From: a virus
IMG/VR virus record: IMGVR_UViG_3300001533_001295
Coordinates: 20,773 to 84,772 of that record
Direction: 5' to 3' (one strand)
Length of the DNA stretch: 64,000 bases
In this document: positions 13,725-30,614 of the stretch, piece by piece
Layout: each line of letters opens with the position of its first letter
How positions within the stretch are numbered: position 1 is the stretch's first letter
Notes under the pieces: generated by a model
Told to the model about the DNA's origin: nothing
Seen by the model: only the letters and a program-made list of their open reading frames with translations
Database searches by the model: none
Program-made: the position numbers and the translations under genes

Positions 13725-13733
13725 GAGCGGGAC

Positions 13734-14576: not shown

Positions 14577-14646
14577 CTAAGCCGTCGGTCGGGGGTTCGA
14601 ATCCCTCCAGAGGTATTTTCAGTAGTATTGCAAAGGAGTGAAAAAT

Positions 14647-14766: not shown

Positions 14767-14807
14767 CAGTTGGGACCGTAGCTCAAAGGTTAGAGCAGGA
14801 AACTCAT

Positions 14808-15584: not shown

Positions 15585-15665
15585 AATTTCTTGGTTGCGG
15601 GTTCGAATCCTGCCGGTCCTATTTTAGTCATTATCTTAGTTTTAAACTTTAACTAGGTTTATACC

Positions 15666-16448: not shown

Positions 16449-16450
16449 GC

Positions 16451-17428: not shown

Positions 17429-17443
17429 GCTTAGTTAAATAAC

Positions 17444-17486
17444 GCGTCCCCGCTCGTTTCTGGGCGGGGACGCTCATCTATTTTTT
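17444..17486 (+). terminator. Intrinsic terminator before the nrd operon
   Basis: Perfect 10-bp stem GCGTCCCCGC / GCGGGGACGC (17444-17453 with 17464-17473), 10-base loop, and a T-rich tail from 17480. Confidence 0.9.
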
Positions 17487-17563
17487 AACTAGCAGCAGGT
17501 GTGGTAAAGTGTATTAGAGCTTGATCATTGGCGCCTGTAACTAACTCTAAGTCTTAAATAAAG

Positions 17564-17610
17564 TCCGCCTATCTTTGCCTCAAAGCAAAGTATCTTTGGC
17601 GGATTTTTTG
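17564..17610 (+). terminator. Leader terminator / possible attenuator of nrdB
   Basis: TCCGCC (17564-17569) pairs with GGCGGA (17598-17603); inside it CTTTGC pairs with GCAAAG; six Ts follow. It lies between the previous gene's terminator and the nrdB start 35 bases further on, so a promoter between 17487 and 17560 would make a short leader RNA that ends here unless read through. This is a plausible attenuator for ribonucleotide reductase; the regulating signal is unknown. Confidence 0.65.
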
Positions 17611-17644
17611 TCTACCCACACAACTTTCACTTGAGGAAATTCTC

Positions 17645-19585
17645 GTGATATTCGAAGAGCAGCTCGCACGCAAGCCGGACCATTATCCCTGGACTGAAGA
17701 ATTTGTGCGAGCTATGTGGGAGGGACATTGGACAGACAGAGAATTTAATTTTTGCTCAGATATACATGATTTTAGAACTAATTTAACCGAGCAAGAACAA
17801 GAGATAATAGTCAGATGTTTATCGGCCATAGCGCAGATAGAAGTAGCTGTTAAGACTTTCTGGGCTAAACTAGGCGATAACTTACCTCACCCGTCTATAA
17901 GAGACATGGGGTACGTCATGGCTAACGTAGAGTGTTATGCCGAAGGAACAGAAGTATTAACTCCATCTGGTTGGTGTAATTTATTTGACGTTAAAAACGG
18001 CGACCCAATTTATCAGTACCATCCTGAAGATGGGTCTTTGTCTGAAACAAAGGCTAAAGATTCTTTTAGTAAGCCTTACAAAGGCGCGATGTTTATTTTT
18101 GGTAGTAAGTCTAACAAGTGCATGGTTACGCCCAACCACAATATGTTAGTTAGACGTATACGAAGTAATTCTTGGGAGCTGACTAAAGCTACGGCTAAAG
18201 ATCTGAAGATACATCCGTCTATTAAAATGCCAAAGACTACGTATATATCTTCAGAAAAAAAGACCGTTAATAAGCTGAGCTACATGGATAGGCTAGCTAT
18301 CGCGATACAAGCGGACGGTACAAGAGCTATGGGGTATTCTAGGCGTGGCGAGTATGTTGAGCGAGGTTCAACCGGTGGTTACACGTATCAACTTAGGTTT
18401 AGGCGTGCTCGAAAAATAGAACGCATCGAATACTTAATCAGTAATGCCGGAATAGACTACAAAAAGTACACACTTAAAGATGGTGTGACGCAGGTTTTTA
18501 ACGTTGTTTTCCCTACAGATAATGATTATAAGAATTTCTCTTGGGTTGACTTGAGTAATAAATCTACAGACTGGTGTAAAGAGTTTGTAGAAGAATTATT
18601 TCATTGGGATGGTAGTTTGCGTCAAAGAGCTTACTTCTCTAAGTACAAAGAGAATGTAGATTTTTGCCAGCATGTAGGTATTTTGGCCGGCTACCACACA
18701 ACTGTAGGGTTTACTGACGACTACAGGACAGGCCAAAATAGGCGAAAACATAGAGTTTTATTCGCCAAAAAGCCGAGTCTTTGGCGTCATATAAGTGATA
18801 TGCGTAAAGAAGAAGTTGATTACTTCGGTAGAGTTGGTTGTGTCACTGTGGACACCGGTGCGATAATGACTCGCTTAGATGGGCGAACATTTATTGCAGG
18901 TAATTGTATCCACAATTCGGCCTACGAGCGTTTATTAGAGGTTCTAGGTATTGAAGATGTATTCGAAAAGAACCTGCAACTAGAGTGGATGCAGGGGCGT
19001 GTTAAATACTTACGAAAGTATACACACAGATTTTATAAAGACAGTAAAAAACAATTTATATATGCCTTAATATTATTTACTCTTTTTGTGGAGAACGTGT
19101 CTCTCTTTAGTCAGTTCTACGTAATTAATTGGTTTGGTCGTAAAAATTTATTAAAAGACACAAACCAGCAGACGAATTACACACTCAAGGAAGAAGACCT
19201 ACACGCTAAAGCCGGCATAAAGCTTATACAGGTAATAAGAAGCGAGCACCCTGAGTTATTTGATGACGAGCTTCAAGGCCGAATACTAGATGAAGCCCGA
19301 GAAGCTTTTAAAGCCGAGTCTAAGATCATCGACTGGATGGTTAACGGCATCAAGGACGAGTTACTTTCTGCCGAGCTATTAAAAGAGTTCGTTAAGAACC
19401 GTATCAACAGCTCATTAAGTCAGATAGGGTTTGACTCGGTTTTTGATGTAGACCAGGATATACTCGCCAAGACTCTGTGGTTTGATGAAGAGTCTTTAGG
19501 TAACGGTATGACGGACTTTTTCCATGCTCGTCCGGTAGAGTATTCGAAAAAAGGCCAGAGTTTCTCCGAAGAAGATTTGTTTTAA
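17645..19585 (+). CDS. nrdB: Ribonucleotide reductase small subunit with intein
   Basis: 646 residues, of which about 322 are NrdB and 324 intein. NrdB houses the di-metal/tyrosyl radical centre needed by NrdA to make deoxynucleotides. Visible extein features: the helix ending in MANVE, then after splicing CIHNSAYERLL, giving the metal-ligand motif E-x-x-H, and later FVENVSLFSQFYVINWF and INSSLSQIGF. GTG start with GAGGA upstream. nrdA follows 10 bases later, so the two are one operon. Confidence 0.92.
   Translation: MIFEEQLARKPDHYPWTEEFVRAMWEGHWTDREFNFCSDIHDFRTNLTEQEQEIIVRCLSAIAQIEVAVKTFWAKLGDNLPHPSIRDMGYVMANVECYAEGTEVLTPSGWCNLFDVKNGDPIYQYHPEDGSLSETKAKDSFSKPYKGAMFIFGSKSNKCMVTPNHNMLVRRIRSNSWELTKATAKDLKIHPSIKMPKTTYISSEKKTVNKLSYMDRLAIAIQADGTRAMGYSRRGEYVERGSTGGYTYQLRFRRARKIERIEYLISNAGIDYKKYTLKDGVTQVFNVVFPTDNDYKNFSWVDLSNKSTDWCKEFVEELFHWDGSLRQRAYFSKYKENVDFCQHVGILAGYHTTVGFTDDYRTGQNRRKHRVLFAKKPSLWRHISDMRKEEVDYFGRVGCVTVDTGAIMTRLDGRTFIAGNCIHNSAYERLLEVLGIEDVFEKNLQLEWMQGRVKYLRKYTHRFYKDSKKQFIYALILFTLFVENVSLFSQFYVINWFGRKNLLKDTNQQTNYTLKEEDLHAKAGIKLIQVIRSEHPELFDDELQGRILDEAREAFKAESKIIDWMVNGIKDELLSAELLKEFVKNRINSSLSQIGFDSVFDVDQDILAKTLWFDEESLGNGMTDFFHARPVEYSKKGQSFSEEDLF
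17933..18904 (+). mobile_element. Intein in NrdB
   Basis: 324 residues, from Cys (CYAEGTEVLTPSGW) to Asn (RTFIAGN), then Cys+1. Block B is visible at MVTPNHNMLV. Two LAGLIDADG-like helices (DRLAIAIQADGT and EELFHWDGS) mark an endonuclease domain. The alternative junction four residues later (IHN before SAYE) has a canonical penultimate His but would remove the E-x-x-H histidine from NrdB, so I prefer AGN|C. Confidence 0.85.
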
Positions 19586-19595
19586 AGGAAGCAAC

Positions 19596-22500
19596 ATGTC
19601 CGACTTCTACTGGCTTAACAATGACTCTAGGCTTTTTCTATCCCGAGGATATTTAGCCGAGGGTCAAGAAGCTGAGGATAGGCTTCTAGATATTAGTAAG
19701 AACGCTGAGAAGACGTTAGGCCCTAACTTCGCCGGCTTTGCTGATAAGTTCTATGGTTATTTAGCTAGAGGCTTCTACTCCCTAGCTACGCCGGTCTGGA
19801 CTAATTACGGAAACGATCGCGGACTTCCTGTGTCCTGCGTTGTTGGTGATACATGGATAAATACAAAATATAATGGAGGCAAACTAGCTAAAGATATAGA
19901 AATAGGAGACGAGGTTTTAACTCATAAAGGGCAATATAAAAAAGTAACAGATGTAATTTTAACAAAAAATCAAAAAGATATTTATAAAATTAAAATATCT
20001 AGCAGAATGACACCACTATACATCACTGGAAACCATTTGGTTTTAACAAATTTAGGATGGGTTAGATGTGATGAGTTAAATTCAGATTACCATCTTGTCG
20101 CTATTAACGGAGATATAGAATATATTGAGCAAGATTACGAAATAGATCTAAAACCATTTTGTAATTTTGAATCAACTATAATTGATGGTAAAATATGTAA
20201 ATTAATTACAGACAATATAAAGTATAAAAAAAGATCAAAGAACGGAGTATATGTTGATTACTACGCTACACCCAAAGAAAAAATACAAGTAGATAACGAC
20301 CTAGCTTGGGCTTTGGGGTTGTGGTTTGCCGAGGGATCCCTTAGCACTAGAGGTGGCTCACCGTGCGGAATTCGTATAACGTATAATACTAAAGACGAAA
20401 AAGAATTGGGGGATAAATGGTTCCATATAATGTCTGAAAAATTCGGCTTAAAAGGTAACATCTATGACAGTGTGTGTAATAGAAATGGAAAATCTACAAG
20501 CTGGAGTAACGCAAATATTAACTCTAATATTATAGGTAATTTTTTCGAATCTTTTGGTAAAGGATGTAAAGAAAAAACAATACCTCAATGGATTATTGAT
20601 CTACCCAAAGAAAAACTTGATCTTTTCTTAAAAGGCTTGTTGGATGGGGATGGTACAAAAACTAAAAGCAATTCCAACAGAATAACCGTAGCAAATCCTA
20701 AAATGCTGCTTCAAATATACCAGATAGGACTAAAACTTGGTTTGCAGATGTCGCTGCAAATGCAAGAAAAAGCAGGAAAATTAGCAACAACTACACATAC
20801 TTATACATGTATCTTTATATCTTATGAAACAGATAATAGAAGATCTAGCAGATTTGCTATTAAATTTCATGATGGTTTATATTACTCGAAAATTAGAGAA
20901 ATATTAAAAACAGATAAATCAGAAGATGTATATGATTTTACTGTTGAAGATGATCATTCTTTTAGCGCTGCTGGTGTCCTACTTCATAATTGCTTCAACT
21001 CACATTTGTCGGACAAAATGCAGTCTATACTATATAAGACTGCTGAAGTCGGCATGATGAGTAAGTACGGCGGCGGCACATCTGGTTACTTCGGCGACAT
21101 ACGTCCTAGAGGCGCGCCTATAAGCGTAGGCGGCACTTCTAGCGGAGCCGTACACTTTATGGAGTTGTTCGATAAAGTGGCAGATACGGTGAACCAGGGC
21201 AACTCTAGGCGCGGATCTTTCGCTGCCTACTTACCTGTAAGCCATCCCGACATACTAGAGTTTTTGCGCATAAGATCTGACGGCCATCCTATTCAGAACA
21301 TGTCGATAGGTGTAACTATCACCGACGACTGGATGAGAGATATGATTGCCGGAGACAAAGACAAGCGTAAGGTATGGGCTAAGATAATTGAGAAGAGATT
21401 TGAGAGCGGTTATCCTTATGTCGCTTTTATAGACAACATTAATAAAAACAATCCTAAAGTTTATAAAGATAAAAATTTAAGCGTAAAATCACAAAATCTT
21501 TGCGTTGCTGGAGACCAGCGGGTTGTAACTAGCCGAGGTATGCTTACAGCTAAAGAGCTGTATGAGATCGGAGGTAACTTAACACTGTTTGACAACGATA
21601 AGATTGTTAATTCAGGGCCTATGTCTCTTGTAGAACGTATGGCCGATGTCTATGAAATTGAGCTAGATAACGGCCTCACACATAAAGTTACTAGCTACCA
21701 TAAAGTTAAAGTCAGGACGTCTGGCACTTTGGATACGGTAGTTAAGACGGCCGACGTAGCTTGCTCAGATTTAAACGTAGGCGATTTAGTAGCTGTTCAG
21801 ACTAATAAAGGTCTGTTTGGTGACGTCAATAAAGAAGATGAAGCTTTTCTACTAGGCTTGCACCAATCAGAAACTGAAGATAATACGTTAACTGAAGTCC
21901 CAGACTGGATCTGGGAGTCAAACGAAGATACGCAGAGAGCATATATAAGAGGCCTACTACTTCCAAATATTGGAAGAGGGCTGCACCACCGGTCAAAGGA
22001 CTTCCTAAAAGACTTACAACTCGTACTAGTGAATTTGGGAATTAACTGTGCTTTAAAATTAAGAGAAGCTGAAGGGGTTTATACACTTTATAGTTTAGAC
22101 GATGATTTAGATAACGCCTTCCATAAAATTAAGTCTATTAATTACGTAGGCCAAGAAGACGTCTACTGCGTGACTGTAGACTCAGCAGAGCACCATTGGG
22201 TCTGCAACGGAGTCGTAACACATAACTGCGCGGAAATATCGCTCCATTCAGATGAAAAATACTCTTTTGTATGCGTGTTATCTTCTATAAACTTAGAACA
22301 CTGGGATGCTATAAAGTCTACAGACGCGGTCGAGACGCTAATATATTTCCTCGACACGGTAAACGAGGAGTTCGTCCGTAAGTCTAAGGATCTTCCTTTT
22401 ATGGAACATCCTTATAATTTCGCTAAAGACCATAGGGCTCTAGGTCTTGGGGTTTTAGGCTGGCACTCGTATCTTCAGTCTAAGATGATACCTTTCGATA

Positions 22501-23129
22501 GCTTTGAAGCTAATCTAGAGAACGTAAGCATCTTTAAGACTATATCTGAGCGCTGTAAAGCAGCTACGACTAAGCTAGCGGATGTTCTAGGTGAGCCAGA
22601 TATTCTAAAAGGTTACGGCGCGCGTAATACGCACACAATGGCGATAGCTCCTACGACATCTTCGTCTTTTATATTAGGTCAGGTATCACCTAGCATAGAG
22701 CCACTCAATAGTAACTACTTTGTTAAGCGTTTAGCCAAAGGTAACTTCACTTATAGAAATCCTTATCTAGTGGATTTACTAAAGGCTAAAAATAAGGATG
22801 ACGCTAACACGTGGCACAGCATCCTAACGCACGGCGGATCTGTACAGCATTTAGACTTTATGGACGACCATGAGAAGAACGTCTTTAAGACCTTCTCAGA
22901 AATTAGTCCTAAGCAAGTCATAATTCAAGCTGCCCAACGCCAGCAGCACATCGATCAAGGTCAGAGCTTAAACATCATGATACCGCCTGGTACTAAGGCT
23001 AAGTTAGTAAGTGATCTTATGATCTTTGCTTGGGAGCAAGGAGTAAAGAGTCTCTACTATCAGCGAAGCGCTAATCCATCTCAGCAGTTGTCTAGAGAGA
23101 TACTAAACTGCTCTGCATGCGAGTCGTAG
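19596..23129 (+). CDS. nrdA: Ribonucleotide reductase large subunit with two inteins
   Basis: 1,177 residues; about 550 remain after removal of two inteins (residues 81-465 and 636-877). NrdA reduces ribonucleotides. After splicing the first junction restores the redox cysteine (LPVS-CFNSH) and the second restores the thiyl-radical motif QNL-CAEI (N, C and E retained). Also seen: GGTSGYFGDIRPRG, NTHTMAIAPTTSSS and a C-terminal C-x-x-C (NCSACES) for reduction. There is no N-terminal ATP cone. The end overlaps the first gene of the small-protein array. Confidence 0.92.
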   Translation: MSDFYWLNNDSRLFLSRGYLAEGQEAEDRLLDISKNAEKTLGPNFAGFADKFYGYLARGFYSLATPVWTNYGNDRGLPVSCVVGDTWINTKYNGGKLAKDIEIGDEVLTHKGQYKKVTDVILTKNQKDIYKIKISSRMTPLYITGNHLVLTNLGWVRCDELNSDYHLVAINGDIEYIEQDYEIDLKPFCNFESTIIDGKICKLITDNIKYKKRSKNGVYVDYYATPKEKIQVDNDLAWALGLWFAEGSLSTRGGSPCGIRITYNTKDEKELGDKWFHIMSEKFGLKGNIYDSVCNRNGKSTSWSNANINSNIIGNFFESFGKGCKEKTIPQWIIDLPKEKLDLFLKGLLDGDGTKTKSNSNRITVANPKMLLQIYQIGLKLGLQMSLQMQEKAGKLATTTHTYTCIFISYETDNRRSSRFAIKFHDGLYYSKIREILKTDKSEDVYDFTVEDDHSFSAAGVLLHNCFNSHLSDKMQSILYKTAEVGMMSKYGGGTSGYFGDIRPRGAPISVGGTSSGAVHFMELFDKVADTVNQGNSRRGSFAAYLPVSHPDILEFLRIRSDGHPIQNMSIGVTITDDWMRDMIAGDKDKRKVWAKIIEKRFESGYPYVAFIDNINKNNPKVYKDKNLSVKSQNLCVAGDQRVVTSRGMLTAKELYEIGGNLTLFDNDKIVNSGPMSLVERMADVYEIELDNGLTHKVTSYHKVKVRTSGTLDTVVKTADVACSDLNVGDLVAVQTNKGLFGDVNKEDEAFLLGLHQSETEDNTLTEVPDWIWESNEDTQRAYIRGLLLPNIGRGLHHRSKDFLKDLQLVLVNLGINCALKLREAEGVYTLYSLDDDLDNAFHKIKSINYVGQEDVYCVTVDSAEHHWVCNGVVTHNCAEISLHSDEKYSFVCVLSSINLEHWDAIKSTDAVETLIYFLDTVNEEFVRKSKDLPFMEHPYNFAKDHRALGLGVLGWHSYLQSKMIPFDSFEANLENVSIFKTISERCKAATTKLADVLGEPDILKGYGARNTHTMAIAPTTSSSFILGQVSPSIEPLNSNYFVKRLAKGNFTYRNPYLVDLLKAKNKDDANTWHSILTHGGSVQHLDFMDDHEKNVFKTFSEISPKQVIIQAAQRQQHIDQGQSLNIMIPPGTKAKLVSDLMIFAWEQGVKSLYYQRSANPSQQLSREILNCSACES
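19836..20990 (+). mobile_element. Intein 1 in NrdA, LAGLIDADG type
   Basis: 385 residues from CVVGDTWIN to GVLLHN, then Cys+1. Block B is ITGNHLVLTN. Two intact LAGLIDADG helices: LAWALGLWFAEGS and LFLKGLLDGDGT, so an active homing endonuclease is likely. The DNA is clearly more AT-rich than the surrounding nrdA, suggesting later arrival. Confidence 0.92.
21501..22226 (+). mobile_element. Intein 2 in NrdA, endonuclease decaying
   Basis: 242 residues from CVAGDQRVVTSRG to NGVVTHN, then Cys+1 (the radical cysteine). Block B: VTSYHKVKVR. The centre keeps the outline of a second LAGLIDADG unit (RAYIRGLLLPNIGRG followed by a long helix) but the catalytic Asp is gone and the first unit is barely visible. 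Splicing looks intact, homing lost. Confidence 0.88.
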
Positions 23130-23320
23130 TAAACACGCAAGAAACTGGCTTAACGTCTTTAACTAGTTACGTTGAAGTCATAAGACACACAGGCCCCGTT
23201 ACTATATTTAGTAACGGGGTTTTGTTTCAACATAACCCGCTAGAAGATGCGTACAATTTTATAGACACCAGAAATAAAGTTTTTTACAGAAGCATACTTT
23301 ATGAAGTACGGCCCAAATGA
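23117..23320 (+). CDS. TGP array member 1
   Basis: 67 residues with the motif IRHTGPV near residue 25, flanked by beta-like strands. The ATG lies inside the last codons of nrdA. Its coding sequence contains an intrinsic terminator right after the motif (23194-23227), which may separate nrd transcription from the array. Family function unknown. Confidence 0.6.
   Translation: MRVVVNTQETGLTSLTSYVEVIRHTGPVTIFSNGVLFQHNPLEDAYNFIDTRNKVFYRSILYEVRPK
23194..23227 (+). terminator. Intrinsic terminator inside array gene 1
   Basis: CCCCGTTAC (23194-23202) pairs perfectly with GTAACGGGG (23211-23219) around an 8-base loop, followed by TTTTGTTT. It lies 65 bases after the nrdA stop, so it probably serves as the nrd operon terminator while also encoding protein. 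Confidence 0.8.
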
Positions 23321-23338
23321 TGAGATATCTTTAAACCT

Positions 23339-23563
23339 ATGACTATGTTGGTAAAAATTAATTCTCTAACTAACGGTGGTAATGAAAATCCTTATCTAAC
23401 TTTAGAGTACGGTAGAAACTACAAAAACAAACATAGACAAACCGGACCTACTCAGTACATACACAACAATAACGGAATATTACTTGCTAAAAACACTTCG
23501 CATAAAATTATTTATTTTAGAGAGAAATTAGCTACAAATTGGATAAAAGAATGGCCAAGTTAA
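23339..23563 (+). CDS. TGP array member 2
   Basis: 74 residues. Motif HRQTGPTQYI (Gln in place of the usual Tyr/His). Asn- and Lys-rich. Separated by 18 bases from member 1, the first gene after the embedded terminator. No clear ribosome site; ATG 23345 is a second option. Confidence 0.6.
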   Translation: MTMLVKINSLTNGGNENPYLTLEYGRNYKNKHRQTGPTQYIHNNNGILLAKNTSHKIIYFREKLATNWIKEWPS

Positions 23564-23580
23564 AGCCAGGCGAGGCCGGA

Positions 23581-23766
23581 ATGCTAGTTGAAGTAAATAG
23601 TTTATCTTTTATTTACGGTAATAGTAGGTATTTAAGGTGTACAGGCCCGTCCATTTGTCGCGAAAATAGAGTGTCTTTTGATACGTGGAACTACAGTACC
23701 TTGGAAAACAGACTGAAACATGTTAAAGCCAAAGATAGAGAACACAATATCCCATGGCTCAGCTAA
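23581..23766 (+). CDS. TGP array member 3
   Basis: 61 residues from ATG 23581 (MLVEVNS), chosen because GAGG lies just upstream and member 9 begins almost identically (MLVEVSN). Motif LRCTGPSI. In-frame starts at 23551 and 23539 would add up to 14 residues overlapping member 2. Confidence 0.6.
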   Translation: MLVEVNSLSFIYGNSRYLRCTGPSICRENRVSFDTWNYSTLENRLKHVKAKDREHNIPWLS

Positions 23767-23993
23767 CTGCGTCAGTTTACTTAAATAATTACAGAAAAAC
23801 CATGATAACCAAAACCGAAAGCCTAGTAGTTGAGGTAACTAAGGTTAGTGTTGTTTACGGCGACTACCTCAAACTGAGGTACACAGGTCCGTCAGTCTGT
23901 TTCATGTCTAGAATAACTTACGACAGAACATCTAAAAGTACTTCTAAACTAAAACATATTGACGCTAAACATAGAAAATTAACTTTCACGTGA
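23754..23993 (+). CDS. TGP array member 4
   Basis: 79 residues; typical core VVYGDYLKLRYTGPSV with a 16-residue N-terminal extension (ATG 23802 would remove it). Overlaps the end of member 3 by 13 bases. Lys-rich tail. Confidence 0.62.
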   Translation: MAQLTASVYLNNYRKTMITKTESLVVEVTKVSVVYGDYLKLRYTGPSVCFMSRITYDRTSKSTSKLKHIDAKHRKLTFT

Positions 23994-24000
23994 GGATTGA

Positions 24001-24213
24001 ATGGTTCAAATAAAAATAAGCAAAGATTCTTTAACTTATTGTTTAGAAGAAAAAAGTGAAACACGTAGCAATCGCATTTTTTTAATGCGCAGATCTACCG
24101 GGTCATCACATATAAACAATAAATATATGTGTCTACATAAATCAATTTTAAAATCTAACGATGATGTCGTTACTTTCTTCTTTAACTACAAAAAAATCTT
24201 TAACAGAGCCTAA
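24001..24213 (+). CDS. TGP array member 5 (TGS variant)
   Basis: 70 residues. The core reads RRSTGSSHI, so the usual proline is Ser and the family is recognised mainly by position and strand pattern. The ATG follows GAGGATTGA. The stop overlaps the next ATG (TAATG). Confidence 0.55.
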   Translation: MVQIKISKDSLTYCLEEKSETRSNRIFLMRRSTGSSHINNKYMCLHKSILKSNDDVVTFFFNYKKIFNRA

Positions 24214-24428
24214 TGAACACAGTATTTGTATTTATATCTGCTAATAAAGTATCTGTGTTTATATCTGCTGATAAAATCAAGACTAAAAGACACACGTATA
24301 TGTACTACTCTAACACCGACGGCTCAGGGCGAGTAAACTACACCGGACCAGTAGTTATGGGAGATGCGTATATAAGCGTATACAATTTTAAGTTTAAGTA
24401 TGTACGGAAAATTCCAAGTATATCGTAA
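24213..24428 (+). CDS. TGP array member 6
   Basis: 71 residues; motif RVNYTGPVVM. The front contains an internal near-repeat (FISANKVSV then FISADKI), suggesting slippage or duplication at the 5' end. Coupled to member 5 by a one-base overlap. Confidence 0.6.
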   Translation: MNTVFVFISANKVSVFISADKIKTKRHTYMYYSNTDGSGRVNYTGPVVMGDAYISVYNFKFKYVRKIPSIS

Positions 24429-24429
24429 A

Positions 24430-24651
24430 ATGGCTAGACATAAAAAACATACGTGTCAGGTAACCGTCTCTGAGCCGTCTGCAATTAGCACAATTATTAT
24501 TTACGGGCAGTACGCTTCATGCAGACACACCGGCCCCTCTGTGGTATCTTCTGACCACATTTGTCTAGAGTACAATGACTGTAACAACTTATATGAATTA
24601 AAAATTTGCTATTTTAGGACTACAAAAATCGAAAAGTCAATTTGTGCTTAA
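24430..24651 (+). CDS. TGP array member 7
   Basis: 73 residues from ATG 24430, one base after the previous stop (an upstream ATG at 24400 is possible). Motif CRHTGPSVV followed by a strand and KICYFR near the C-terminus, a tail also seen in members 8 and 9 in similar form. Confidence 0.6.
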   Translation: MARHKKHTCQVTVSEPSAISTIIIYGQYASCRHTGPSVVSSDHICLEYNDCNNLYELKICYFRTTKIEKSICA

Positions 24652-24675
24652 ATTTACACATTGATAAGAAAAATT

Positions 24676-24906
24676 ATGCCTCATGTAATCATTTCTAGAT
24701 ATAGTGTAATTATTTATAAAATATACGATGAAAATATGAACGATAACATCGCACTTAACTACTACTGCGGGTCCTTAACCTGTCGTCGGTATACTGGACC
24801 TGGCATAATTCGGGCTAGTAATATTTGTCTAATTTATTCTGAAGCATCAGGAGAAACTCATTTTAAGGTCTGTAAATTTAAGCTTAAGAGGGCGTCATGC
24901 TTGTAG
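24676..24906 (+). CDS. TGP array member 8
   Basis: 76 residues from ATG 24676. Motif RRYTGPGII, then SNICLIYSE and a KVCKFKLKR tail. Overlaps the start of member 9. A TTG at 24661 could extend it by five residues. Confidence 0.6.
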   Translation: MPHVIISRYSVIIYKIYDENMNDNIALNYYCGSLTCRRYTGPGIIRASNICLIYSEASGETHFKVCKFKLKRASCL

Positions 24907-25142
24907 AAGTTTCTAATAATATAACAGTTTATGGTAGTTACGTAGAAGCTAGATATACTGGCCCTGCGGTATTTCGTCATGATTCGGTTTATCTAGATTA
25001 TTATATAAATTTTAAAGAACGTAATTCAGTGCAGATACAGCTAGGTAGTGCTGTTAAACCCGTAGAATGTTTTACTCAAAAAATTTGCTACTTTAAGATC
25101 AAAAAGACAAACGATCTTTTTGATTTTAGTACTAAGCAATGA
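24897..25142 (+). CDS. TGP array member 9
   Basis: 81 residues. Clean example of the family: MLVEVSNNITVYGSYVEA, then RYTGPAVFRHDSVYLDYY, and a C-terminal KICYFKIKK. Start and stop both overlap neighbours. Confidence 0.65.
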   Translation: MLVEVSNNITVYGSYVEARYTGPAVFRHDSVYLDYYINFKERNSVQIQLGSAVKPVECFTQKICYFKIKKTNDLFDFSTKQ

Positions 25143-25327
25143 GACTGAAGATTCAACCGTATAGCGTAACTATCGCTAAAGTAGGGATTAATAATTTCCT
25201 AAAATACTACGTCATATATAGTCCTGAAATGAGTCAGTTTAGGTATACCGGGCCAGCTATAATTTGGGCTAACATTTCTTTTTTAGACAAAATATTTGCA
25301 GCACGAGCCGCTGCCAGGATGTTTTAG
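25139..25327 (+). CDS. TGP array member 10
   Basis: 62 residues. Motif FRYTGPAII. The C-terminal strand usual after the motif is replaced by an Ala-rich helix (FAARAAARMF). ATGA overlap with member 9. Confidence 0.6.
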   Translation: MRLKIQPYSVTIAKVGINNFLKYYVIYSPEMSQFRYTGPAIIWANISFLDKIFAARAAARMF

Positions 25328-25329
25328 CG

Positions 25330-25509
25330 ATGTTTAGTGTATCTATAACGCATATAGGCTTAGGGTATGGTAATTTTATCTTAGCTAGAAATACCGGGCC
25401 TCGGTTAATAATTAAAAACTACGTCGTCTTACAGTATCTGTCTCCAGAGAAAGTCTACTGCTGTAAAATTTGCGCGCACTCAAACAAACAAAATTACTAT
25501 GCAAGTTAA
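25330..25509 (+). CDS. TGP array member 11
   Basis: 59 residues starting MFSVSITHIGLGYGNF. Motif ARNTGPRLI (Asn at the aromatic position), then YVVLQYLS and a CCKICAHSN tail. Starts two bases after member 10 and overlaps member 12. Confidence 0.6.
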   Translation: MFSVSITHIGLGYGNFILARNTGPRLIIKNYVVLQYLSPEKVYCCKICAHSNKQNYYAS

Positions 25510-25645
25510 TATAAATGCTTTTAACGTGTTAATTTATGACTTCGTCAGACATACTGGGCCTTGTGCGCTAGATAATGGAAGTTTCGATTTAGATGTTTAT
25601 TCGACTGAAAACGGTTATTACGTGCAGACTTTTTGTTATCTCTAG
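25499..25645 (+). CDS. TGP array member 12
   Basis: 48 residues, one of the smallest: MQVNINAFNVLIYDF, then VRHTGPCAL, FDLDVY and YYVQTFCYL. Close to the minimal unit of the family: two short strands, the motif, a middle strand and a last strand. Confidence 0.6.
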   Translation: MQVNINAFNVLIYDFVRHTGPCALDNGSFDLDVYSTENGYYVQTFCYL

Positions 25646-25734
25646 TAAGCAAACAATCGACTATCCCCACTGAGTGAAAAAGCTTAGATAAGCGTAACTT
25701 TTTTAAATTCTACTTACCTGAGAACAAACACTGC

Positions 25735-25965
25735 ATGACTAATTTGAGCGTAACAGTGTCGAATATGAAGATATCGTACGGTGACTATATTTCTAGATAT
25801 CAGGTTGTTAGAGCTGGCCTTACTTTCTATAGACATACAGGACCTTATGTAGTCTCAGACAACTACGTTCTACTTGATACATACTTTCAGCAAATACTTG
25901 TAAAACTCATTACTTCCGTTAGGTGTTTAATAATATGTCTCAAATTGGTACCTTTAATAGAATGA
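25735..25965 (+). CDS. TGP array member 13
   Basis: 76 residues; motif YRHTGPYVVSDNYVLLD, hydrophobic C-terminal strand. An 89-base gap before it holds no gene or clear hairpin, so this may begin a second sub-block. Confidence 0.62.
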   Translation: MTNLSVTVSNMKISYGDYISRYQVVRAGLTFYRHTGPYVVSDNYVLLDTYFQQILVKLITSVRCLIICLKLVPLIE

Positions 25966-26210
25966 CGAACGTAACTAGTCACAGTGAGGACGGCTGTCAG
26001 ATAGTTCCCCAGTTAATAAAAATTTCAAAAAACGAGGTTGTTTATGGTAACAGATACTTAATTAGATATACCGGGCCTTCTATAATATACTCGATATCAT
26101 GCTGTGCAGATCTTAGTCATTTCCCAAACACGTACCGTCAAATAATTTTTGACATACGTAAAAAAAAATTATGTAGACATGAAACAGAATATAAAAAACA
26201 AGTATTTTAA
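25935..26210 (+). CDS. TGP array member 14
   Basis: 91 residues from ATG 25935, with a 30-residue N-terminal extension before the family core (VVYGNRYLIRYTGPSII). Overlaps member 13 by 31 bases. Confidence 0.6.
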   Translation: MSQIGTFNRMTNVTSHSEDGCQIVPQLIKISKNEVVYGNRYLIRYTGPSIIYSISCCADLSHFPNTYRQIIFDIRKKKLCRHETEYKKQVF

Positions 26211-26223
26211 AAGACATCCTCCA

Positions 26224-26442
26224 ATGTATAGGTTTCCAACCATAAACATGCGGCTGAAATTTAAAATTTTTGTAAAAATAGTTGATAGAAGAAATTTAAA
26301 CTACAGTTTCTTAGGAAAATACTCATTAAGAGATCACCGATTAACCGGCCCCGCCGTAATCACTAACAGATACGTTGCTTTAAAACATAATTTGTCTAGA
26401 AAATCTAAATTCTATTTTTACACTAATAAAAAATCTTTGTGA
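26224..26442 (+). CDS. TGP array member 15
   Basis: 72 residues from ATG 26224 (ATG 26248 also possible). Motif HRLTGPAVITNRYVALK, with Leu at the aromatic position. Very basic. Confidence 0.58.
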   Translation: MYRFPTINMRLKFKIFVKIVDRRNLNYSFLGKYSLRDHRLTGPAVITNRYVALKHNLSRKSKFYFYTNKKSL

Positions 26443-26472
26443 TCGTTGCTTCTTCTAAGGTAGCGCGCTTGC

Positions 26473-26673
26473 ATGTTTAAAGTAGTAGTAGATAGCTCAG
26501 GGATATGGTACTACTCACCGTTAGGGCTAGCTAAGTACACCGGTCCTTGTATAGCGGGTCGTAATTATTTTGTTTTAAAGAAAATAATAAAACTAAGAAA
26601 ACGCAATAATGGACGTAGGCCGCTGCTGCATTATAGATACGCAGTTAAATACCGTGAAATTAAAATTATCTAG
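26473..26673 (+). CDS. TGP array member 16
   Basis: 66 residues; motif AKYTGPCIAGRNYFVLK, long basic tail. TAG stop touches the next ATG (TAGATG). Confidence 0.62.
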   Translation: MFKVVVDSSGIWYYSPLGLAKYTGPCIAGRNYFVLKKIIKLRKRNNGRRPLLHYRYAVKYREIKII

Positions 26674-26895
26674 ATGTTCCCAGTAAAGATATCACTACAC
26701 CATATAGTTTATGTCAGTACCGATGGACCAGGTCGAATAAGATACACTGGACCAGCAATTGTAGGGCGTACGTATTCATATTTATATTCGTTCCAAGAAA
26801 AATACCGTATTAGAAAAATTTATGATTTTAGGCTTAAAACAAGTTACGTATTTGCAGAGGAATTAGATGTTAAGGATAGAAGTATCGTTAAGTAG
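26674..26895 (+). CDS. TGP array member 17
   Basis: 73 residues; motif IRYTGPAIVGRTYSYLY, then KIYDFRLK. The front (HHIVYVSTDGPGRIRYTGP) resembles member 6, so the two may be direct copies. Overlaps member 18. Confidence 0.62.
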   Translation: MFPVKISLHHIVYVSTDGPGRIRYTGPAIVGRTYSYLYSFQEKYRIRKIYDFRLKTSYVFAEELDVKDRSIVK

Positions 26896-27031
26896 GGTAA
26901 TTTACGTCTACGGCAGATATACCGGTCCTTCCTCAATATTTCTTCTAAGAATTTACTTAGACTCGATTAAAGAAGGACGCTATGTTGAAAAAATCTATGA
27001 TTTTATAAATAAGTCCGAGCAGATTTTTTAG
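26867..27031 (+). CDS. TGP array member 18
   Basis: 54 residues: MLRIEVSLSRVIYVYG, RYTGPSS, YLDSIKEGRYVEKIYDF. Shares a near-identical YLDSIKEG block with member 20, and a diverged one with member 19, marking a recent duplication group. Confidence 0.62.
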   Translation: MLRIEVSLSRVIYVYGRYTGPSSIFLLRIYLDSIKEGRYVEKIYDFINKSEQIF

Positions 27032-27036
27032 TTAGG

Positions 27037-27228
27037 ATGCAGATGATCAAGATAAAAATAGCGCCAGGTCGTGTAATGTACGACCACAGCTTATATAGGT
27101 ATACCGGTCCTTACGTAATATTTCCTAGACTAATCTTCTTAGACTCGTTTAAAGAAGAACTATATGTTCAAATAATTTATGATATTAAACGTAAATGCGA
27201 GCAAAATACGGATATGTCTGAAAATTAG
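27037..27228 (+). CDS. TGP array member 19
   Basis: 63 residues; YRYTGPYVIFPRLIFLDSF, then YVQIIYDIKRK. TAG stop touches the next ATG. Belongs to the 18-20 group. Confidence 0.65.
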   Translation: MQMIKIKIAPGRVMYDHSLYRYTGPYVIFPRLIFLDSFKEELYVQIIYDIKRKCEQNTDMSEN

Positions 27229-27420
27229 ATGTTCGGCGTAAGGATAACACTAGACTGCGTAATCTACGGCACTTTAGAATCATATAGATACACCGGTCCC
27301 TCTGTAGTACGCGCTAGCGCCGCCTACTTAGACTCGATTAAAGAAGGGGGTTATGTGCAGATAATTCATGAGGTTAAACATAAATCAAAACGAACTGTAA
27401 ATTTAACTGATTATACGTAG
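27229..27420 (+). CDS. TGP array member 20
   Basis: 63 residues; YRYTGPSVVRASAAYLDSI, then GYVQIIHEVKHK. A 49-base stretch (27325-27373) is repeated exactly at 27428-27476, inside the fragment that follows. Confidence 0.65.
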   Translation: MFGVRITLDCVIYGTLESYRYTGPSVVRASAAYLDSIKEGGYVQIIHEVKHKSKRTVNLTDYT

Positions 27421-27598
27421 TGGCACTTACTTAGACTCGATTAAAGAAGGGGGTTATGTGCAGATAATTCATGAGGACCACAATCCAATATATGTTAATA
27501 GTCCGTTTAAGATGCAAACTCAGTTTAGTACGGACTTTACTATTGAAGAAATTATAAAAAGTGATGAAGTAGCGAAGTTTATGTCACGGTTTGAGTAA
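27421..27598 (+). pseudogene. TGP array fragment (member 21), chimeric
   Basis: An open frame without a proper start. Its first part is an exact copy of the middle of member 20 (LDSIKEGGYVQIIHE); the rest (NPIYVNSPFKMQTQF to the stop) has no resemblance to the family. The front with the TGP motif is missing, so this is a duplication fragment fused to other sequence. A short product from ATG 27513 is conceivable. Confidence 0.6.
27428..27476 (+). repeat. 49-bp direct repeat, copy 2
   Basis: Identical to 27325-27373 with an offset of 103 bases. Perfect identity beside otherwise diverged neighbours shows a recent duplication. Confidence 0.85.
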
Positions 27599-27867
27599 TG
27601 TTCAAATCAATAATTGCAGGTAAACGTGTAGCAGTTATTAAAGTTAGAGTTAGCTTGCGGGAAGTTAATTATTACGAATATAAGTTTAATAATTGGAAAA
27701 ACACGGGTATAAATTTTTCTAGGGATACGGGAGCTGCTTTAATGAAGCGATCTTCATCGTATTTTTGTTCCAGCGGTAGAACACTTAAAACGGTGTTTGT
27801 TTGTATGACGTTAGGAAATGGAGATAACGTTGACAAAGTCGTACAGGTGTTCCCGTCGTATGATTGA
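27598..27867 (+). CDS. TGP array member 22 (TGA variant)
   Basis: 89 residues; core SRDTGAALMKRSSSYF, proline replaced by Ala. Long front with a strand pattern like the others. The ATG overlaps the stop of the fragment before it (TAATG). Confidence 0.55.
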   Translation: MFKSIIAGKRVAVIKVRVSLREVNYYEYKFNNWKNTGINFSRDTGAALMKRSSSYFCSSGRTLKTVFVCMTLGNGDNVDKVVQVFPSYD

Positions 27868-27894
27868 TAATCGTCTCAACGTAGAAATTCATCC

Positions 27895-28128
27895 ATGCTA
27901 GATGATATTGACAGCGACTCAGTTAATGTAGTCGTTACTGTAACGCGGTCTGGCGTTATTGACTTCTTAGTCAGAAAAAGATACACCGGACCTTACGCTA
28001 TAATTAAAGATAGCATATGGTTAATTGAGTCTCACAGAGGATCTATGTGTGACTTTACTACTGTAATTATCACTGCTAGCGATAGGCGGCGGCGCTCAGC
28101 AGGTTTCGCGAGTGAGTGTCTTGATTAA
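27895..28128 (+). CDS. TGP array member 23
   Basis: 77 residues; motif KRYTGPYAIIKDSIWLIE. Acidic N-terminus (MLDDIDSDS) and Arg-rich tail. Overlaps member 24 by 17 bases. Confidence 0.6.
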   Translation: MLDDIDSDSVNVVVTVTRSGVIDFLVRKRYTGPYAIIKDSIWLIESHRGSMCDFTTVIITASDRRRRSAGFASECLD

Positions 28129-28333
28129 GGATAATCGTAATTTGGTCTACGTAATTGTTAAAGCTAACAATAAATTTAGATTTAACCTTTGCAGGTACAC
28201 AGGTGTCTGTTGTAACACACCTACGTATGCGCTACTTATGCGCCTTAACGTTAATGATGTGTACGTAGATAACATTTGCGTAAAGTACATTTCGGCGTTA
28301 ACGCACAAGATAGAAAAATCAACTCATAGCTGA
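28112..28333 (+). CDS. TGP array member 24 (TGV variant)
   Basis: 73 residues from GTG; core CRYTGVCCNTPTYALL with Val for Pro. Members 24-26 are neighbours and all lack the proline. Confidence 0.55.
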   Translation: MSVLIKDNRNLVYVIVKANNKFRFNLCRYTGVCCNTPTYALLMRLNVNDVYVDNICVKYISALTHKIEKSTHS

Positions 28334-28343
28334 AGTGTTATAT

Positions 28344-28598
28344 ATGAAATTAACGCCGTTTATAGTAGATATTTCTCCACAGCAAAAGGCTAAAAACAAG
28401 CACGTAATATTTAACTACGATAACTACAATCAATTTAGATATACTGGAGCTTGCTTAAGCACAAAAACCGACGTAGTCTTGAGAACGCCAACTTTAATAA
28501 CACCAGAGCGACCGAAAGAACTTAGACTTAAACTAATTATTGTAGAATATAAAAAAACGCAGATTTTACCAGTTGCTTATCCTTGGACTCTCGAATAA
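28344..28598 (+). CDS. TGP array member 25 (TGA variant)
   Basis: 84 residues from ATG 28344 (GTG 28335 possible); core FRYTGACLSTKTDVVL. The C-terminal half is Lys/Arg/Leu-rich (ERPKELRLKLIIVEYKK). Confidence 0.55.
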   Translation: MKLTPFIVDISPQQKAKNKHVIFNYDNYNQFRYTGACLSTKTDVVLRTPTLITPERPKELRLKLIIVEYKKTQILPVAYPWTLE

Positions 28599-28608
28599 CG
28601 CTAATGTA

Positions 28609-28806
28609 ATGACGTTAGTTGTTGAAATTAGTAACACGCTACGCATATCGTATTGCGTAGATAAAAAAACTAATTTAAAAATTATCACAGAATACAGATT
28701 TACTGGGGCTGCGTTTGTAGTTCGCGGTATTTCTTATTTAAACAAAAAAAACACTTTATACTTAATACTTGACGTACGCAACAGAAAGGTAGCTGGTCTT
28801 GTGTAA
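28609..28806 (+). CDS. TGP array member 26 (TGA variant)
   Basis: 65 residues from ATG 28609; core YRFTGAAFVVRGISYL. A frame extension upstream to TTG 28573 overlaps member 25 and is less likely. Confidence 0.55.
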   Translation: MTLVVEISNTLRISYCVDKKTNLKIITEYRFTGAAFVVRGISYLNKKNTLYLILDVRNRKVAGLV

Positions 28807-28810
28807 GCCA

Positions 28811-28957
28811 ATGGTAATAGTAACGATTCATTACTTAGAATATAAAATTAACGCAACTTATCCGCACAGATTGCGTGTATTGTGTGCAGCTTATGAACGT
28901 ACGACTTACGGAAATTTACGCCATTATGTTAGAGATACCGGGTTATTTCTTGTTTAA
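28811..28957 (+). CDS. TGP array member 27, truncated
   Basis: 48 residues. The motif RDTGLFLV comes at the very C-terminus and the strands that normally follow it are absent, so this looks like a family member cut short by a stop. It may be a dying copy. Confidence 0.45.
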   Translation: MVIVTIHYLEYKINATYPHRLRVLCAAYERTTYGNLRHYVRDTGLFLV

Positions 28958-28960
28958 ACG

Positions 28961-29170
28961 ATGTGTAAGGTATTTAGTATGAATGAATTTGACGTTTTAA
29001 GCGTCGATATTTTTAGTGTCGATTATTTTATTTACGGAGATTACAACAAATACAGACACACCGGCCCCTCTGTAATTAAGAAACATGTAGTAGCTTTAGA
29101 TAAGTATGTAGCCCATCCACGCATACCAGCCAGGATTGATGCGTCTAAAAAAATTACTGATTTTAACTAA
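28961..29170 (+). CDS. TGP array member 28
   Basis: 69 residues (or 63 from ATG 28979); YGDYNKYRHTGPSVIKKHVV, then ALDKY. A typical member in sequence. Confidence 0.62.
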   Translation: MCKVFSMNEFDVLSVDIFSVDYFIYGDYNKYRHTGPSVIKKHVVALDKYVAHPRIPARIDASKKITDFN

Positions 29171-29172
29171 GT

Positions 29173-29400
29173 ATGAAAAATATCAGAGTAACGGTAGGCA
29201 TCGATGCTAGAAAAATAGCCCACAACACAAGCATACATTTTTGTGTTTATTTTATTTACGTAAACTACGGCAACAAATACGACCGGTTTACCGGTCCTTG
29301 CGCGTCTTTTCAAGATGACACTGTCTCGATCAACAACACCGAATTAGACTTAAAGAAAAAGACAGAACGCAGTTACTTAAATTATTTTTACCGCAGATAG
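29173..29400 (+). CDS. TGP array member 29
   Basis: 75 residues; NKYDRFTGPCASFQDDTV. Last gene of the array; it ends seven bases from the convergent minus-strand operon, with no obvious terminator between them. Confidence 0.62.
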   Translation: MKNIRVTVGIDARKIAHNTSIHFCVYFIYVNYGNKYDRFTGPCASFQDDTVSINNTELDLKKKTERSYLNYFYRR

Positions 29401-29406
29401 TAACTA

Positions 29407-29649
29407 TTAAAAAGACTTGACCTCGTTTTTATTTAAATCAACATCAGTGTTGTTGACTGAGTTACCTAAATTAGAGCAAGAGCCAAGTATAGTTATTACG
29501 CCTACGACAACTGTAACCCAAGCAGCTACTGTAGAAGGCTTGAGTACGTCTTTACCTTCTCCAGGTTCGTTTAAGTAATCTCCACCAACTACTTTGTCTA
29601 TCTTATTTACGTTGTTGATGTTTATTTTAGTGATCTTATCTCTTCGCAT
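29407..29649 (-). CDS. Single-span small membrane protein
   Basis: 80 residues. A hydrophobic segment near residues 42-58 (AAWVTVVVGVITILGSC) flanked by polar ends; the LGSC at its end resembles a lipobox but sits far from the N-terminus. The front (INNVNKIDKVVGG) echoes the C-terminus of the gene before it. Last gene of the minus-strand trio. Lysis or membrane-stress functions are conceivable; none is demonstrated. Confidence 0.6.
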   Translation of the reverse strand: MRRDKITKININNVNKIDKVVGGDYLNEPGEGKDVLKPSTVAAWVTVVVGVITILGSCSNLGNSVNNTDVDLNKNEVKSF

Positions 29650-29650
29650 A

Positions 29651-29953
29651 TCAGTCTACTTTATTATTAGTTTCTCCACCTAGATTACCTATAGAGTTTA
29701 CTCGGTCTATATCTATGTTGACGTTGGACTTGTTACTAATGATTTGTACTGAGTGAATTAAATTCTCATGCCTAGTACACAGGTGCTCAAACTTACTTTC
29801 TAACTTACCTATATCAGCTACACACCTATCTATGTTTTGTGCGTGAAATCTCATGTTAGCTTTAAGGTTAGTGATGTCTGCGTATATAGCTGCAAACTCT
29901 CCTCTAAGCTTATCTAACCTGTCTATGAGTTCTACGTATCTAGTGACGTCCAC
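29651..29953 (-). CDS. Small coiled-coil protein
   Basis: 100 residues; residues 5-80 are helical with heptad-like spacing (LIDRLDKLRGEFAAIYADI and on), no membrane span. The C-terminal IDIDRVNSIGNLGGETNN resembles the front of the next gene. One base separates its stop from that gene's start. Could link the two membrane proteins of this operon; inference only. Confidence 0.6.
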   Translation of the reverse strand: MDVTRYVELIDRLDKLRGEFAAIYADITNLKANMRFHAQNIDRCVADIGKLESKFEHLCTRHENLIHSVQIISNKSNVNIDIDRVNSIGNLGGETNNKVD

Positions 29954-29966
29954 GACTAAACCTTAA

Positions 29967-30614
29967 CTAGCTAGAGCATAGTAAATAATGTTTTCCGTCA
30001 AACATATATTTATGTACGTGCGTGTGTATCTTACGTAGCTCATTATTACTTAAACCAACCTCCAATGTTAATTCTGCGTCATGTCTACAACTGGGTATAG
30101 CTAAAATTAGGTATAATTCTTTTATACTGTCCTCACTCAAAAACGAATTAACTTCAGACCCTACCAACTCTTCACACACCTTATTAAACTGTTCGGCAAA
30201 TTCTTGTGTCGAAAAAATTACATTTAAATTCTCGTCTATGATGATGAACTTTAAATGTGCTTCTTTTATGCCGTAGAGCGTAGTTATTGCTCGCTGGTTA
30301 GATCCATCCGCATCTGGGATGTAGCTTTCGGTTAAACCATCTATAGCTTTGTCTAAACTATCCTCTATCTTTTTTATGCGTAAATCTTCAAACACCATAA
30401 ACACACACATAAAAGCCAGAGTAGACGAGGCCACGATCGTTATAGTTATCACTAAGCTGTTGTTTTGATTTAACTCTTGCTTAGTAACCGTGTCCAAGCT
30501 AACTTCTGCTGCGTAATTAATCTTGTAGTCGAGATTAAACAACGTAATAAATAGAATACTTATGTATACTATCGTTGTAGGTATTAAGTATTTATCGAAT
30601 CCTAAAGTTGTCAT
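29967..30614 (-). CDS. Two-span membrane protein with a PAS-like cytoplasmic part
   Basis: 215 residues. Hydrophobic segments near 9-27 and 53-75 enclose a short outside loop. The rest (AHLKFIIIDENLNVIFSTQE onward) has the strand-turn-strand layout of a PAS-type sensor domain, without a visible kinase or cyclase part. First gene of the minus-strand operon, divergent from gene 30736. Possibly a sensor in the host membrane during infection; moderate support. Confidence 0.6.
   Translation of the reverse strand: MTTLGFDKYLIPTTIVYISILFITLFNLDYKINYAAEVSLDTVTKQELNQNNSLVITITIVASSTLAFMCVFMVFEDLRIKKIEDSLDKAIDGLTESYIPDADGSNQRAITTLYGIKEAHLKFIIIDENLNVIFSTQEFAEQFNKVCEELVGSEVNSFLSEDSIKELYLILAIPSCRHDAELTLEVGLSNNELRKIHTHVHKYMFDGKHYLLCSS

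What the first reader, a model, noticed from the sequence alone, without database searches (positions are those of the whole stretch)
23117..29400. Tandem array of 28 small paralogous genes sharing an R-[YH]-T-G-P core
Twenty-eight small genes (48-91 codons) and one fragment follow one another on one strand with almost no spacing. Most encode the same layout: two short strands, a Y-G-x-Y turn, then R-[YH]-T-G-P-[SAC]-[VI], a strand often ending L-D, and a basic last strand. Outside the core they have diverged strongly. Tandem growth to this copy number with fast divergence usually reflects selection for variety or dose (for example against changing host targets). I know no family with this signature. 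It sits between nrdA and the second half of the RNA polymerase. This is the best candidate for an undescribed system.
Basis: partly seen in the sequence, partly recalled or inferred. Interest (0 to 1): 0.87.

Follow-up and report, generated by a model that had tools for sequence, protein, structure and literature searches.

The report
Array of 28 diverged phage mini-genes
A large uncultured phage carries 28 back-to-back copies of a tiny gene found in no database searched here; every copy keeps the same Thr-Gly heart of an Arg-x-Thr-Gly-Pro core while the rest has drifted far apart, so it looks like a panel of diversified small proteins whose target is unknown.

Summary
Window 23117-29400 has 28 consecutive same-strand ORFs (48-89 aa) and one 3' fragment. 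ORFs of 46 aa or more cover 96% of the stretch, against 11% on average (26% at most) in simulated sequence. All 28 keep T-G, 26 keep R and 22 keep P. The Thr and Gly codons do not vary at positions 1-2 but vary almost freely at position 3, so selection acts on protein, not on a DNA or RNA motif. Identity is 24% overall and 13% outside nine core columns. Neighbours are more alike than distant copies, and a 48-nt exact partial repeat marks a recent duplication: local tandem birth plus divergence. AlphaFold gives a small all-beta fold without a Foldseek match. Pfam, PHROGs, NCBIfam, PADLOC, PDB, Rfam, phage tblastn, IMG/VR and GTDB pattern scans, 19 related phage records and 80 nrdA loci gave no relative. 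The array lies in an accessory segment of about 19 kb between the two RNA polymerase genes; the closest relative found has unrelated cargo there, more distant ones about 1 kb. Best guess (0.4): a diversified set of host- or defence-binding proteins. Function is not shown. Family and array are new to these searches; a tandem multigene family is a known kind.

The parts
23117..23320 (+). array gene 1, 67 aa, core RHTGP; overlaps the 3' end of nrdA by 13 nt
23339..23563 (+). array gene 2, 74 aa, core RQTGP
23551..23766 (+). array gene 3, 71 aa, core RCTGP; 44% identical to gene 4
23802..23993 (+). array gene 4, 63 aa (an upstream in-frame start at 23754 is possible), core RYTGP
24001..24213 (+). 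array gene 5, 70 aa, divergent core RSTGS
24213..24428 (+). array gene 6, 71 aa, core NYTGP; nearest paralogue is gene 17, not a neighbour
24430..24651 (+). array gene 7, 73 aa, core RHTGP
24676..24906 (+). array gene 8, 76 aa, core RYTGP with a long insertion before the core
24897..25142 (+). array gene 9, 81 aa, core RYTGP
25139..25327 (+). array gene 10, 62 aa, core RYTGP
25330..25509 (+). array gene 11, 59 aa, core RNTGP
25499..25645 (+). array gene 12, 48 aa, core RHTGP, acidic (pI 4.1), unlike most
25735..25965 (+). array gene 13, 76 aa, core RHTGP; preceded by an 89-nt gap
25962..26210 (+). array gene 14, 82 aa, core RYTGP; best profile score
26248..26442 (+). array gene 15, 64 aa, core RLTGP, net charge +14
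26473..26673 (+). array gene 16, 66 aa, core KYTGP, net charge +13
26674..26895 (+). array gene 17, 73 aa, core RYTGP
26867..27031 (+). array gene 18, 54 aa, core RYTGP; recent trio with genes 19 and 20
27037..27228 (+). array gene 19, 63 aa, core RYTGP; AlphaFold2 model, mean pLDDT 83.8
27229..27420 (+). array gene 20, 63 aa, core RYTGP
27418..27598 (+). fragment: duplicated 3' part of gene 20 (first 59 nt 93% identical, 48 nt exact) running into a 46-codon ORF (27458-27598) without the core
27598..27867 (+). array gene 21, 89 aa, divergent core RDTGA
27895..28128 (+). array gene 22, 77 aa, core RYTGP
28112..28333 (+). array gene 23, 73 aa, GTG start, divergent core RYTGV
28335..28598 (+). 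array gene 24, 87 aa, GTG start, divergent core RYTGA
28609..28806 (+). array gene 25, 65 aa, divergent core RFTGA
28811..28957 (+). array gene 26, 48 aa, divergent core RDTGL, ends just after the core (probably truncated)
28961..29170 (+). array gene 27, 69 aa, core RHTGP
29173..29400 (+). array gene 28, 75 aa, core RFTGP
17645..19585 (+). nrdB (class I ribonucleotide reductase small chain, long for the family); upstream neighbour, possibly same transcript, with a strong terminator-like hairpin before it at 17444-17473
19596..23129 (+). nrdA (large chain) with two intein/Hint stretches; directly upstream of and overlapping the array
29407..30614 (-). three convergent genes (80, 100 and 215 aa; the last with a weak PAS match) that close the array
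11805..30614 (.). accessory segment between the beta-beta' fusion gene (7386-11804) and the conserved block 30679-33890; holds two tRNAs, two HNH genes, nrdB, nrdA and the array

Best explanation
A lineage-specific multigene family of small, mostly basic, all-beta proteins (about 50-90 aa). It grew by repeated tandem duplication inside an accessory segment of a large tailed phage and diverged under constraint that preserves a common scaffold (alternating hydrophobic positions, Y, R-x-T-G-P, L, K). Shown: coding, paralogy, shared core, tandem mode, accessory location. Inferred: the array is co-transcribed with nrdB-nrdA and translated largely by coupling; the shared fold displays variable surfaces; and the set works as a panel of inhibitors or adaptors binding several variants of a host or anti-phage-defence target, so that variety rather than dose is what selection kept.
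For: 28 ORFs far above chance. Core Thr and Gly codons: zero entropy at positions 1-2, 1.55 and 1.99 bits at position 3. All 28 copies keep T-G although mean identity is 24% and 13% outside the core against 6% from composition, so the copies are not decaying freely, and they are not homogenised as dose selection would predict. Neighbours are more similar than distant copies (Mantel rho -0.21, p 0.002), with a recent partial duplication. Basic: mean net charge +4.6, 26 of 28 with pI above 7.5. All-beta models with five common strands for two members. Variable accessory site: the closest relative found carries unrelated cargo there, more distant ones about 1 kb. Precedent: T4 escapes ToxIN by tandem amplification of the 85-aa inhibitor gene tifA (PMC9391042), and homing endonuclease SegB drives such amplifications (PMC13096335); two HNH genes and two tRNAs lie in the same segment.
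Against: No homologue, fold match, defence-database hit or neighbour ties any copy to a host or defence target. Positive selection is not shown; pairwise dN/dS is below 1 and the alignments are short and near saturation. Documented viral amplifications give near-identical copies, not 24% identical ones. Adjacency to nrdA could suggest a metabolic or replication role. No expression data. The second fold model is weak (pLDDT 72) and the five models of the first vary widely (59-84).
Confidence: 0.4

Rival explanations
1. Near-neutral birth and death: tandem duplication by recombination in a tolerant accessory segment keeps adding copies of a weakly useful gene; divergence is drift under fold-level constraint and copy number has no function of its own.
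For: The array is AT-rich and atypical in codon make-up (GC1 0.375 against 0.509); start sites have weak Shine-Dalgarno pairing; there is a fragment, a truncated gene 26 and a run of copies lacking the P (genes 23-26); the most recent pair (18/19) has dN/dS 0.87.
Against: T-G is intact in 28/28 and Y in 27/28 copies despite 13% identity elsewhere; ORFs cover 96% of the stretch; phage genomes have limited room.
Confidence: 0.22
2. Parts of an assembly: diverged paralogues occupy different positions of one hetero-oligomer (virion decoration, internal head protein, or nucleic-acid-coating protein), with the R-x-T-G-P loop as the common contact.
For: Small, mostly basic, all-beta proteins; same strand and tight junctions; structural genes follow the RNA polymerase gene in related phages.
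Against: 28 different subunits would be extraordinary; six copies have lost the P; the array sits with nrdA/nrdB in a variable segment not shared by relatives, not in the conserved structural block.
Confidence: 0.18
3. Dose: the phage needs a great deal of one small protein and multiplied the gene, as T4 does with tifA under ToxIN.
For: Head-to-tail single-strand array; tifA encodes an 85-aa protein and is amplified in tandem (PMC9391042).
Against: The copies are not near-identical; the closest pair is about 50% identical in protein. Poxvirus K3L arrays under selection become homogenised (PMC6115191). Dose may explain the origin, not the present state.
Confidence: 0.1
4. A repeated DNA or RNA element (binding site, recombination site, structured RNA) that happens to read as protein.
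For: The core DNA AGRYAYACNGGNCC recurs: 20 hits with at most one mismatch in the window against 0.8 expected.
Against: Third codon positions in the core vary freely while positions 1-2 do not; spacing is irregular; no Rfam match; 28 long ORFs are not expected.
Confidence: 0.02

Closest known systems
T4 tifA (gp61.4) segmental tandem amplification against ToxIN (PMC9391042)
   Same: Phage; small protein (85 aa); head-to-tail tandem copies made by recombination; copy number grew under host pressure.
   Different: Those copies arose recently in an evolution experiment and carry dmd along; here 28 copies average 24% identity and no target is known. tifA itself was not compared pairwise.
SegB homing-endonuclease-driven amplification of anti-defence loci in T6 (PMC13096335)
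   Same: Homing-endonuclease and tRNA genes near the amplified locus: two HNH genes and two tRNAs lie in the same accessory segment here.
   Different: No SegB-type enzyme was identified here, and no link between the HNH genes and the array was tested.
Poxvirus K3L gene arrays (PMC6115191)
   Same: Tandem array of a small viral gene with copy-number dynamics under host pressure.
   Different: Those arrays homogenise; this one is strongly diverged. Eukaryotic virus; no sequence comparison made.
Tandem multigene families of large DNA viruses (for example African swine fever virus MGFs; own knowledge)
   Same: Many diverged tandem paralogues, variable between isolates, in accessory regions.
Tandem hli genes of cyanophages (own knowledge)
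   Same: Several small paralogous genes close together in a tailed phage.
   Different: A few copies of a photosynthesis-related helical membrane protein; here 28 copies of a predicted beta protein.

Membership tests
Any described protein family (Pfam, PHROGs, NCBIfam, PADLOC, PDB) | Significant profile or sequence match | tested here: not met
   28 members scanned; best single-member E-values 0.034 (Pfam), 0.057 (PHROGs), 0.076 (NCBIfam), none (PADLOC), each in one member only; PDB profile best E 3
Any described fold | Foldseek match to PDB or BFVD | tested here: not met
   No match below E 0.2; model confidence is moderate, so this is a weak negative
Tandem multigene family | Adjacent same-strand genes related by descent | tested here: met
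   Pairwise blastp down to 9e-13; profile hits in the 28 genes; 17 small ORFs linked at E<1e-3
Tandem multigene family | Growth by local duplication (neighbours most alike) | tested here: met
   Mantel rho -0.21, p 0.002; genes 18-20 trio and partial duplicate at 27418
Dose amplification (tifA/K3L type) | Near-identical copies | tested here: not met
   Mean identity 24%, max 48% in the multiple alignment
Dose amplification (tifA/K3L type) | Inhibits a defence or host factor | not testable with these tools
   No target known; needs an experiment
Diversity-generating retroelement | Reverse transcriptase in the same genome | tested here: not met
   RVT_1 (PF00078) not found in the 84.8-kb contig while 3 control genomes ring; the rest of the phage genome is not held
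Structured RNA or DNA repeat | Rfam match or codon-blind conservation | tested here: not met
   No Rfam hit; third codon positions vary freely in the core

The most novel reading that the evidence does not exclude
A phage-encoded repertoire: one small beta scaffold, held by an R-x-T-G-P core, multiplied to 28 diverged versions that are deployed together so that some bind whatever variant of a host or defence protein is met, as a standing library instead of one inhibitor.
Probability: 0.3. Interest if true: 0.88.

Novelty: new variant of a known kind. Interest (0 to 1): 0.62.

Why it matters
Phage genomes are compact, and in the 1.67 Mb of fetched (mostly phage, partly redundant) loci no other group of even three similar small ORFs turned up. 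Keeping 6 kb for 28 diverged copies of one mini-gene suggests that the variety, or each copy, pays. If the copies proved to be binders, the array would be a natural library of small scaffold variants and a route to finding unknown defence or host-takeover targets. If they are an assembly or drift, it is still a striking case of tandem gene-family growth in a phage.

Tried and rejected
(1) Known family: Pfam, PHROGs, NCBIfam, PADLOC, PDB and Rfam, none. (2) DNA/RNA repeat: rejected by codon-position entropy. (3) Chance ORFs: rejected. (4) Related arrays elsewhere: two-copy pattern in IMG/VR, 0 hits (a narrow pattern); Y-G..R-[YH]-T-G-P-[SA]-[VI] pattern, 2 IMG/VR and 7 GTDB stretches, one match each, none with an array on inspection; core plus L-D pattern, 1 hit in a 42-aa ORF; single-member search, none; tblastn on phages, only chance. 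(5) Profile search of 17 IMG/VR relatives of the RNAP genes, Salmonella phage Arash and Vibrio phage D69: nothing beyond one 13.9-bit minus-strand match in an overlapping frame, shared by the records of L032 and L033. (6) Hmmsearch of ORFs of all fetched loci, 80 nrdA loci included: best 12.6 bits. (7) Diversity-generating retroelement: no RT. (8) Codon-usage coding score: only 14 of 28 true frames rank first (4.7 expected), so composition is atypical and this test is weak. (10) Paper searches for phage small-gene arrays gave nothing relevant.
Full report
Where it is. The window is bases 20773-84772 of a virus record of 84,772 bases, probably a fragment. It carries a gene encoding fused RNA polymerase beta and beta' N-terminal parts (7386-11804) and a separate beta' C-terminal gene with a Hint/intein stretch (31572-33890). 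Contigs with 46-49% identical beta' C-terminal segments reach 194-205 kb. The nearest named phages, at about 29% identity over the beta-beta' gene, are Salmonella phage Arash (181 kb) and Vibrio phages D69, D148 and D181 (about 187 kb). A large phage is therefore likely; 'jumbo' is not shown.

Between nrdA and three convergent minus-strand genes there are 28 consecutive + strand ORFs with the core and one fragment. Eight of 27 junctions overlap and eleven have 0-10 nt. Simulated sequence of the same dinucleotide make-up gives about 4 ORFs of this size, never more than 10; the stretch has 29. A profile of the 28 finds 28 hits in the contig, all inside the array.

It is protein-coding and under protein-level selection. 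In the Thr and Gly codons of the core, positions 1 and 2 are invariant in all 28 copies, while position 3 has entropy 1.55 and 1.99 bits out of 2. No DNA or RNA motif would behave so, and Rfam has no match. Across the family, T and G are kept in 28, R in 26, the preceding Tyr in 27 and P in 22. Hydrophobic columns in the first strand, a Leu and a late Lys are also conserved. Mean identity is 24% overall, 13% outside the nine most conserved columns, against 6% expected from composition. The six copies without P are genes 5, 21 and 23-26, so the distal part of the array is the less canonical one; gene 26 stops right after the core.

It grew by tandem duplication. Similarity falls with distance in the array (Mantel rho -0.21, p 0.002). 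Genes 18-20 are a recent trio, and a 59-nt, 93% copy of gene 20 (48 nt exact) lies as a fragment just downstream at 27418. Genes 6 and 17, far apart, are a close pair (51% over 37 aa), so some copies moved or larger blocks were duplicated. Closest-pair dN/dS values are 0.19-0.87 by NG86 on 45-60 codons: constraint or near neutrality, not demonstrated positive selection. The pairs are short and mostly near saturation.

The site is an accessory segment. In seven related IMG/VR loci that were examined, the beta-beta' gene is followed within about 1-1.7 kb by the beta' C-terminal gene and then a homologue of window gene 34759; five of the seven also show homologues of window genes at 53-58 kb. In the window, about 19 kb intervenes: two tRNAs, two HNH genes, nrdB, nrdA, the array and three minus-strand genes. 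The closest relative found (L033, 55% in its best beta-beta' segment) has about 28 kb at the same place with other cargo and no array; it shares the small genes just before beta' C. The array is therefore cargo of a variable site, and its place between the two polymerase genes says little about function.

No relatives were found. Pfam, PHROGs, NCBIfam, PADLOC and PDB gave nothing significant. Three DNA pattern scans of IMG/VR and one of GTDB gave only isolated hits without an array. The profile found no array in 17 related IMG/VR contigs, in Arash or in D69, nor in ORFs of the 80 nrdA loci. The tools warn that records very near the window may be left out, metagenome contigs could not be scanned, and short diverged proteins are hard to find. 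'Orphan' is thus a statement about these searches only.

Structure. AlphaFold2 on gene 19 with 15 paralogues gave mean pLDDT 83.8 and pTM 0.63, with six strands (6-9, 12-15, 25-28, 32-39, 42-49, 54-59); the other four models were 59-69. Gene 14 with 19 paralogues gave pLDDT 72.4 and five strands in matching positions. In both, the R-x-T-G residues lie in the loop just before the third strand, and the segment before the core is where the insertions occur (alignments). Foldseek against PDB and BFVD gave no match below E 0.2.

Expression, inferred. No terminator-like site was found between nrdA and gene 1 on the + strand, and a strong terminator-like hairpin precedes nrdB (17444-17473), so nrdB-nrdA-array may be one transcript. 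Shine-Dalgarno pairing is weaker at array starts than at large genes (median -2.4 against -3.8 kcal/mol) but above the array background, which with the overlaps suggests translational coupling.

What it most likely does. The pattern of a constant core on a small fold, strong divergence elsewhere, many intact copies in one cassette and an accessory site fits selection for variety better than for dose. Amplified arrays on record are near-identical or homogenise: T4 tifA (85 aa) under ToxIN (PMC9391042) and poxvirus K3L (PMC6115191). Homing endonuclease SegB can drive such phage amplifications (PMC13096335), and HNH genes and tRNAs lie in the same segment here, but no causal link was tested. I therefore favour a panel of host- or defence-binding proteins (0.4) over near-neutral birth and death (0.22), an assembly (0.18) or dose (0.1). 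The molecular target is unknown, and nothing here shows an interaction.

Novelty. The protein family and a 28-member diverged array in a phage are new to every collection searched. In 1.67 Mb of fetched, partly redundant loci no other group of three or more similar small ORFs appeared. The organisation, a tandem multigene family in a virus, is a known kind. Hence 'new variant of a known kind', with fairly high interest but an open mechanism.

Noticed in passing
window 19596-23129: nrdA carries two intein/Hint stretches (about residues 111-465 and 636-737), the first with a LAGLIDADG-type endonuclease match; nrdB (17645-19585, 646 aa) is far longer than its family profile and may carry one too.
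   Followed up: partly
window 7386-11804 and 31572-33890: RNA polymerase beta and beta' N-terminal parts are fused in one gene and the beta' C-terminal part is a separate gene with a Hint/intein stretch; the best-matching PHROGs (24349, 25354) are labelled unknown function.
   Followed up: partly
window 62997-64000: Collagen-like G-P-T/T-G-P repeats (period 36-45 nt) in an ORF running off the window end; probably a fibre protein, not related to the array despite the shared T-G-P letters.
   Followed up: no
window 29407-30614 (-): Three minus-strand genes convergent with the array, the largest apparently membrane-bound with a weak PAS match; no relative of it found in IMG/VR.
   Followed up: partly
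window 13977-14474 and 14879-15496: Two HNH_3 homing-type endonuclease genes in the same accessory segment as the array and two tRNA genes (11805-12074).
   Followed up: partly
L038/L039 (G017:C1:56000-90000): The closest relative found has a different cargo of about 28 kb at the same site between the two RNA polymerase genes; by eye of the translations it includes thymidylate-synthase-like and sulfotransferase-like ORFs. Possibly a recurrent accessory hotspot.
   Followed up: partly
window 42179-42265: Short tandem repeat coding for a repetitive stretch at the end of ORF 41784-42281.
   Followed up: no
window 43441-45663: 740-aa ORF with a PHROG protease match and an endonuclease match, suggesting an intein-containing protease.
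   Followed up: no
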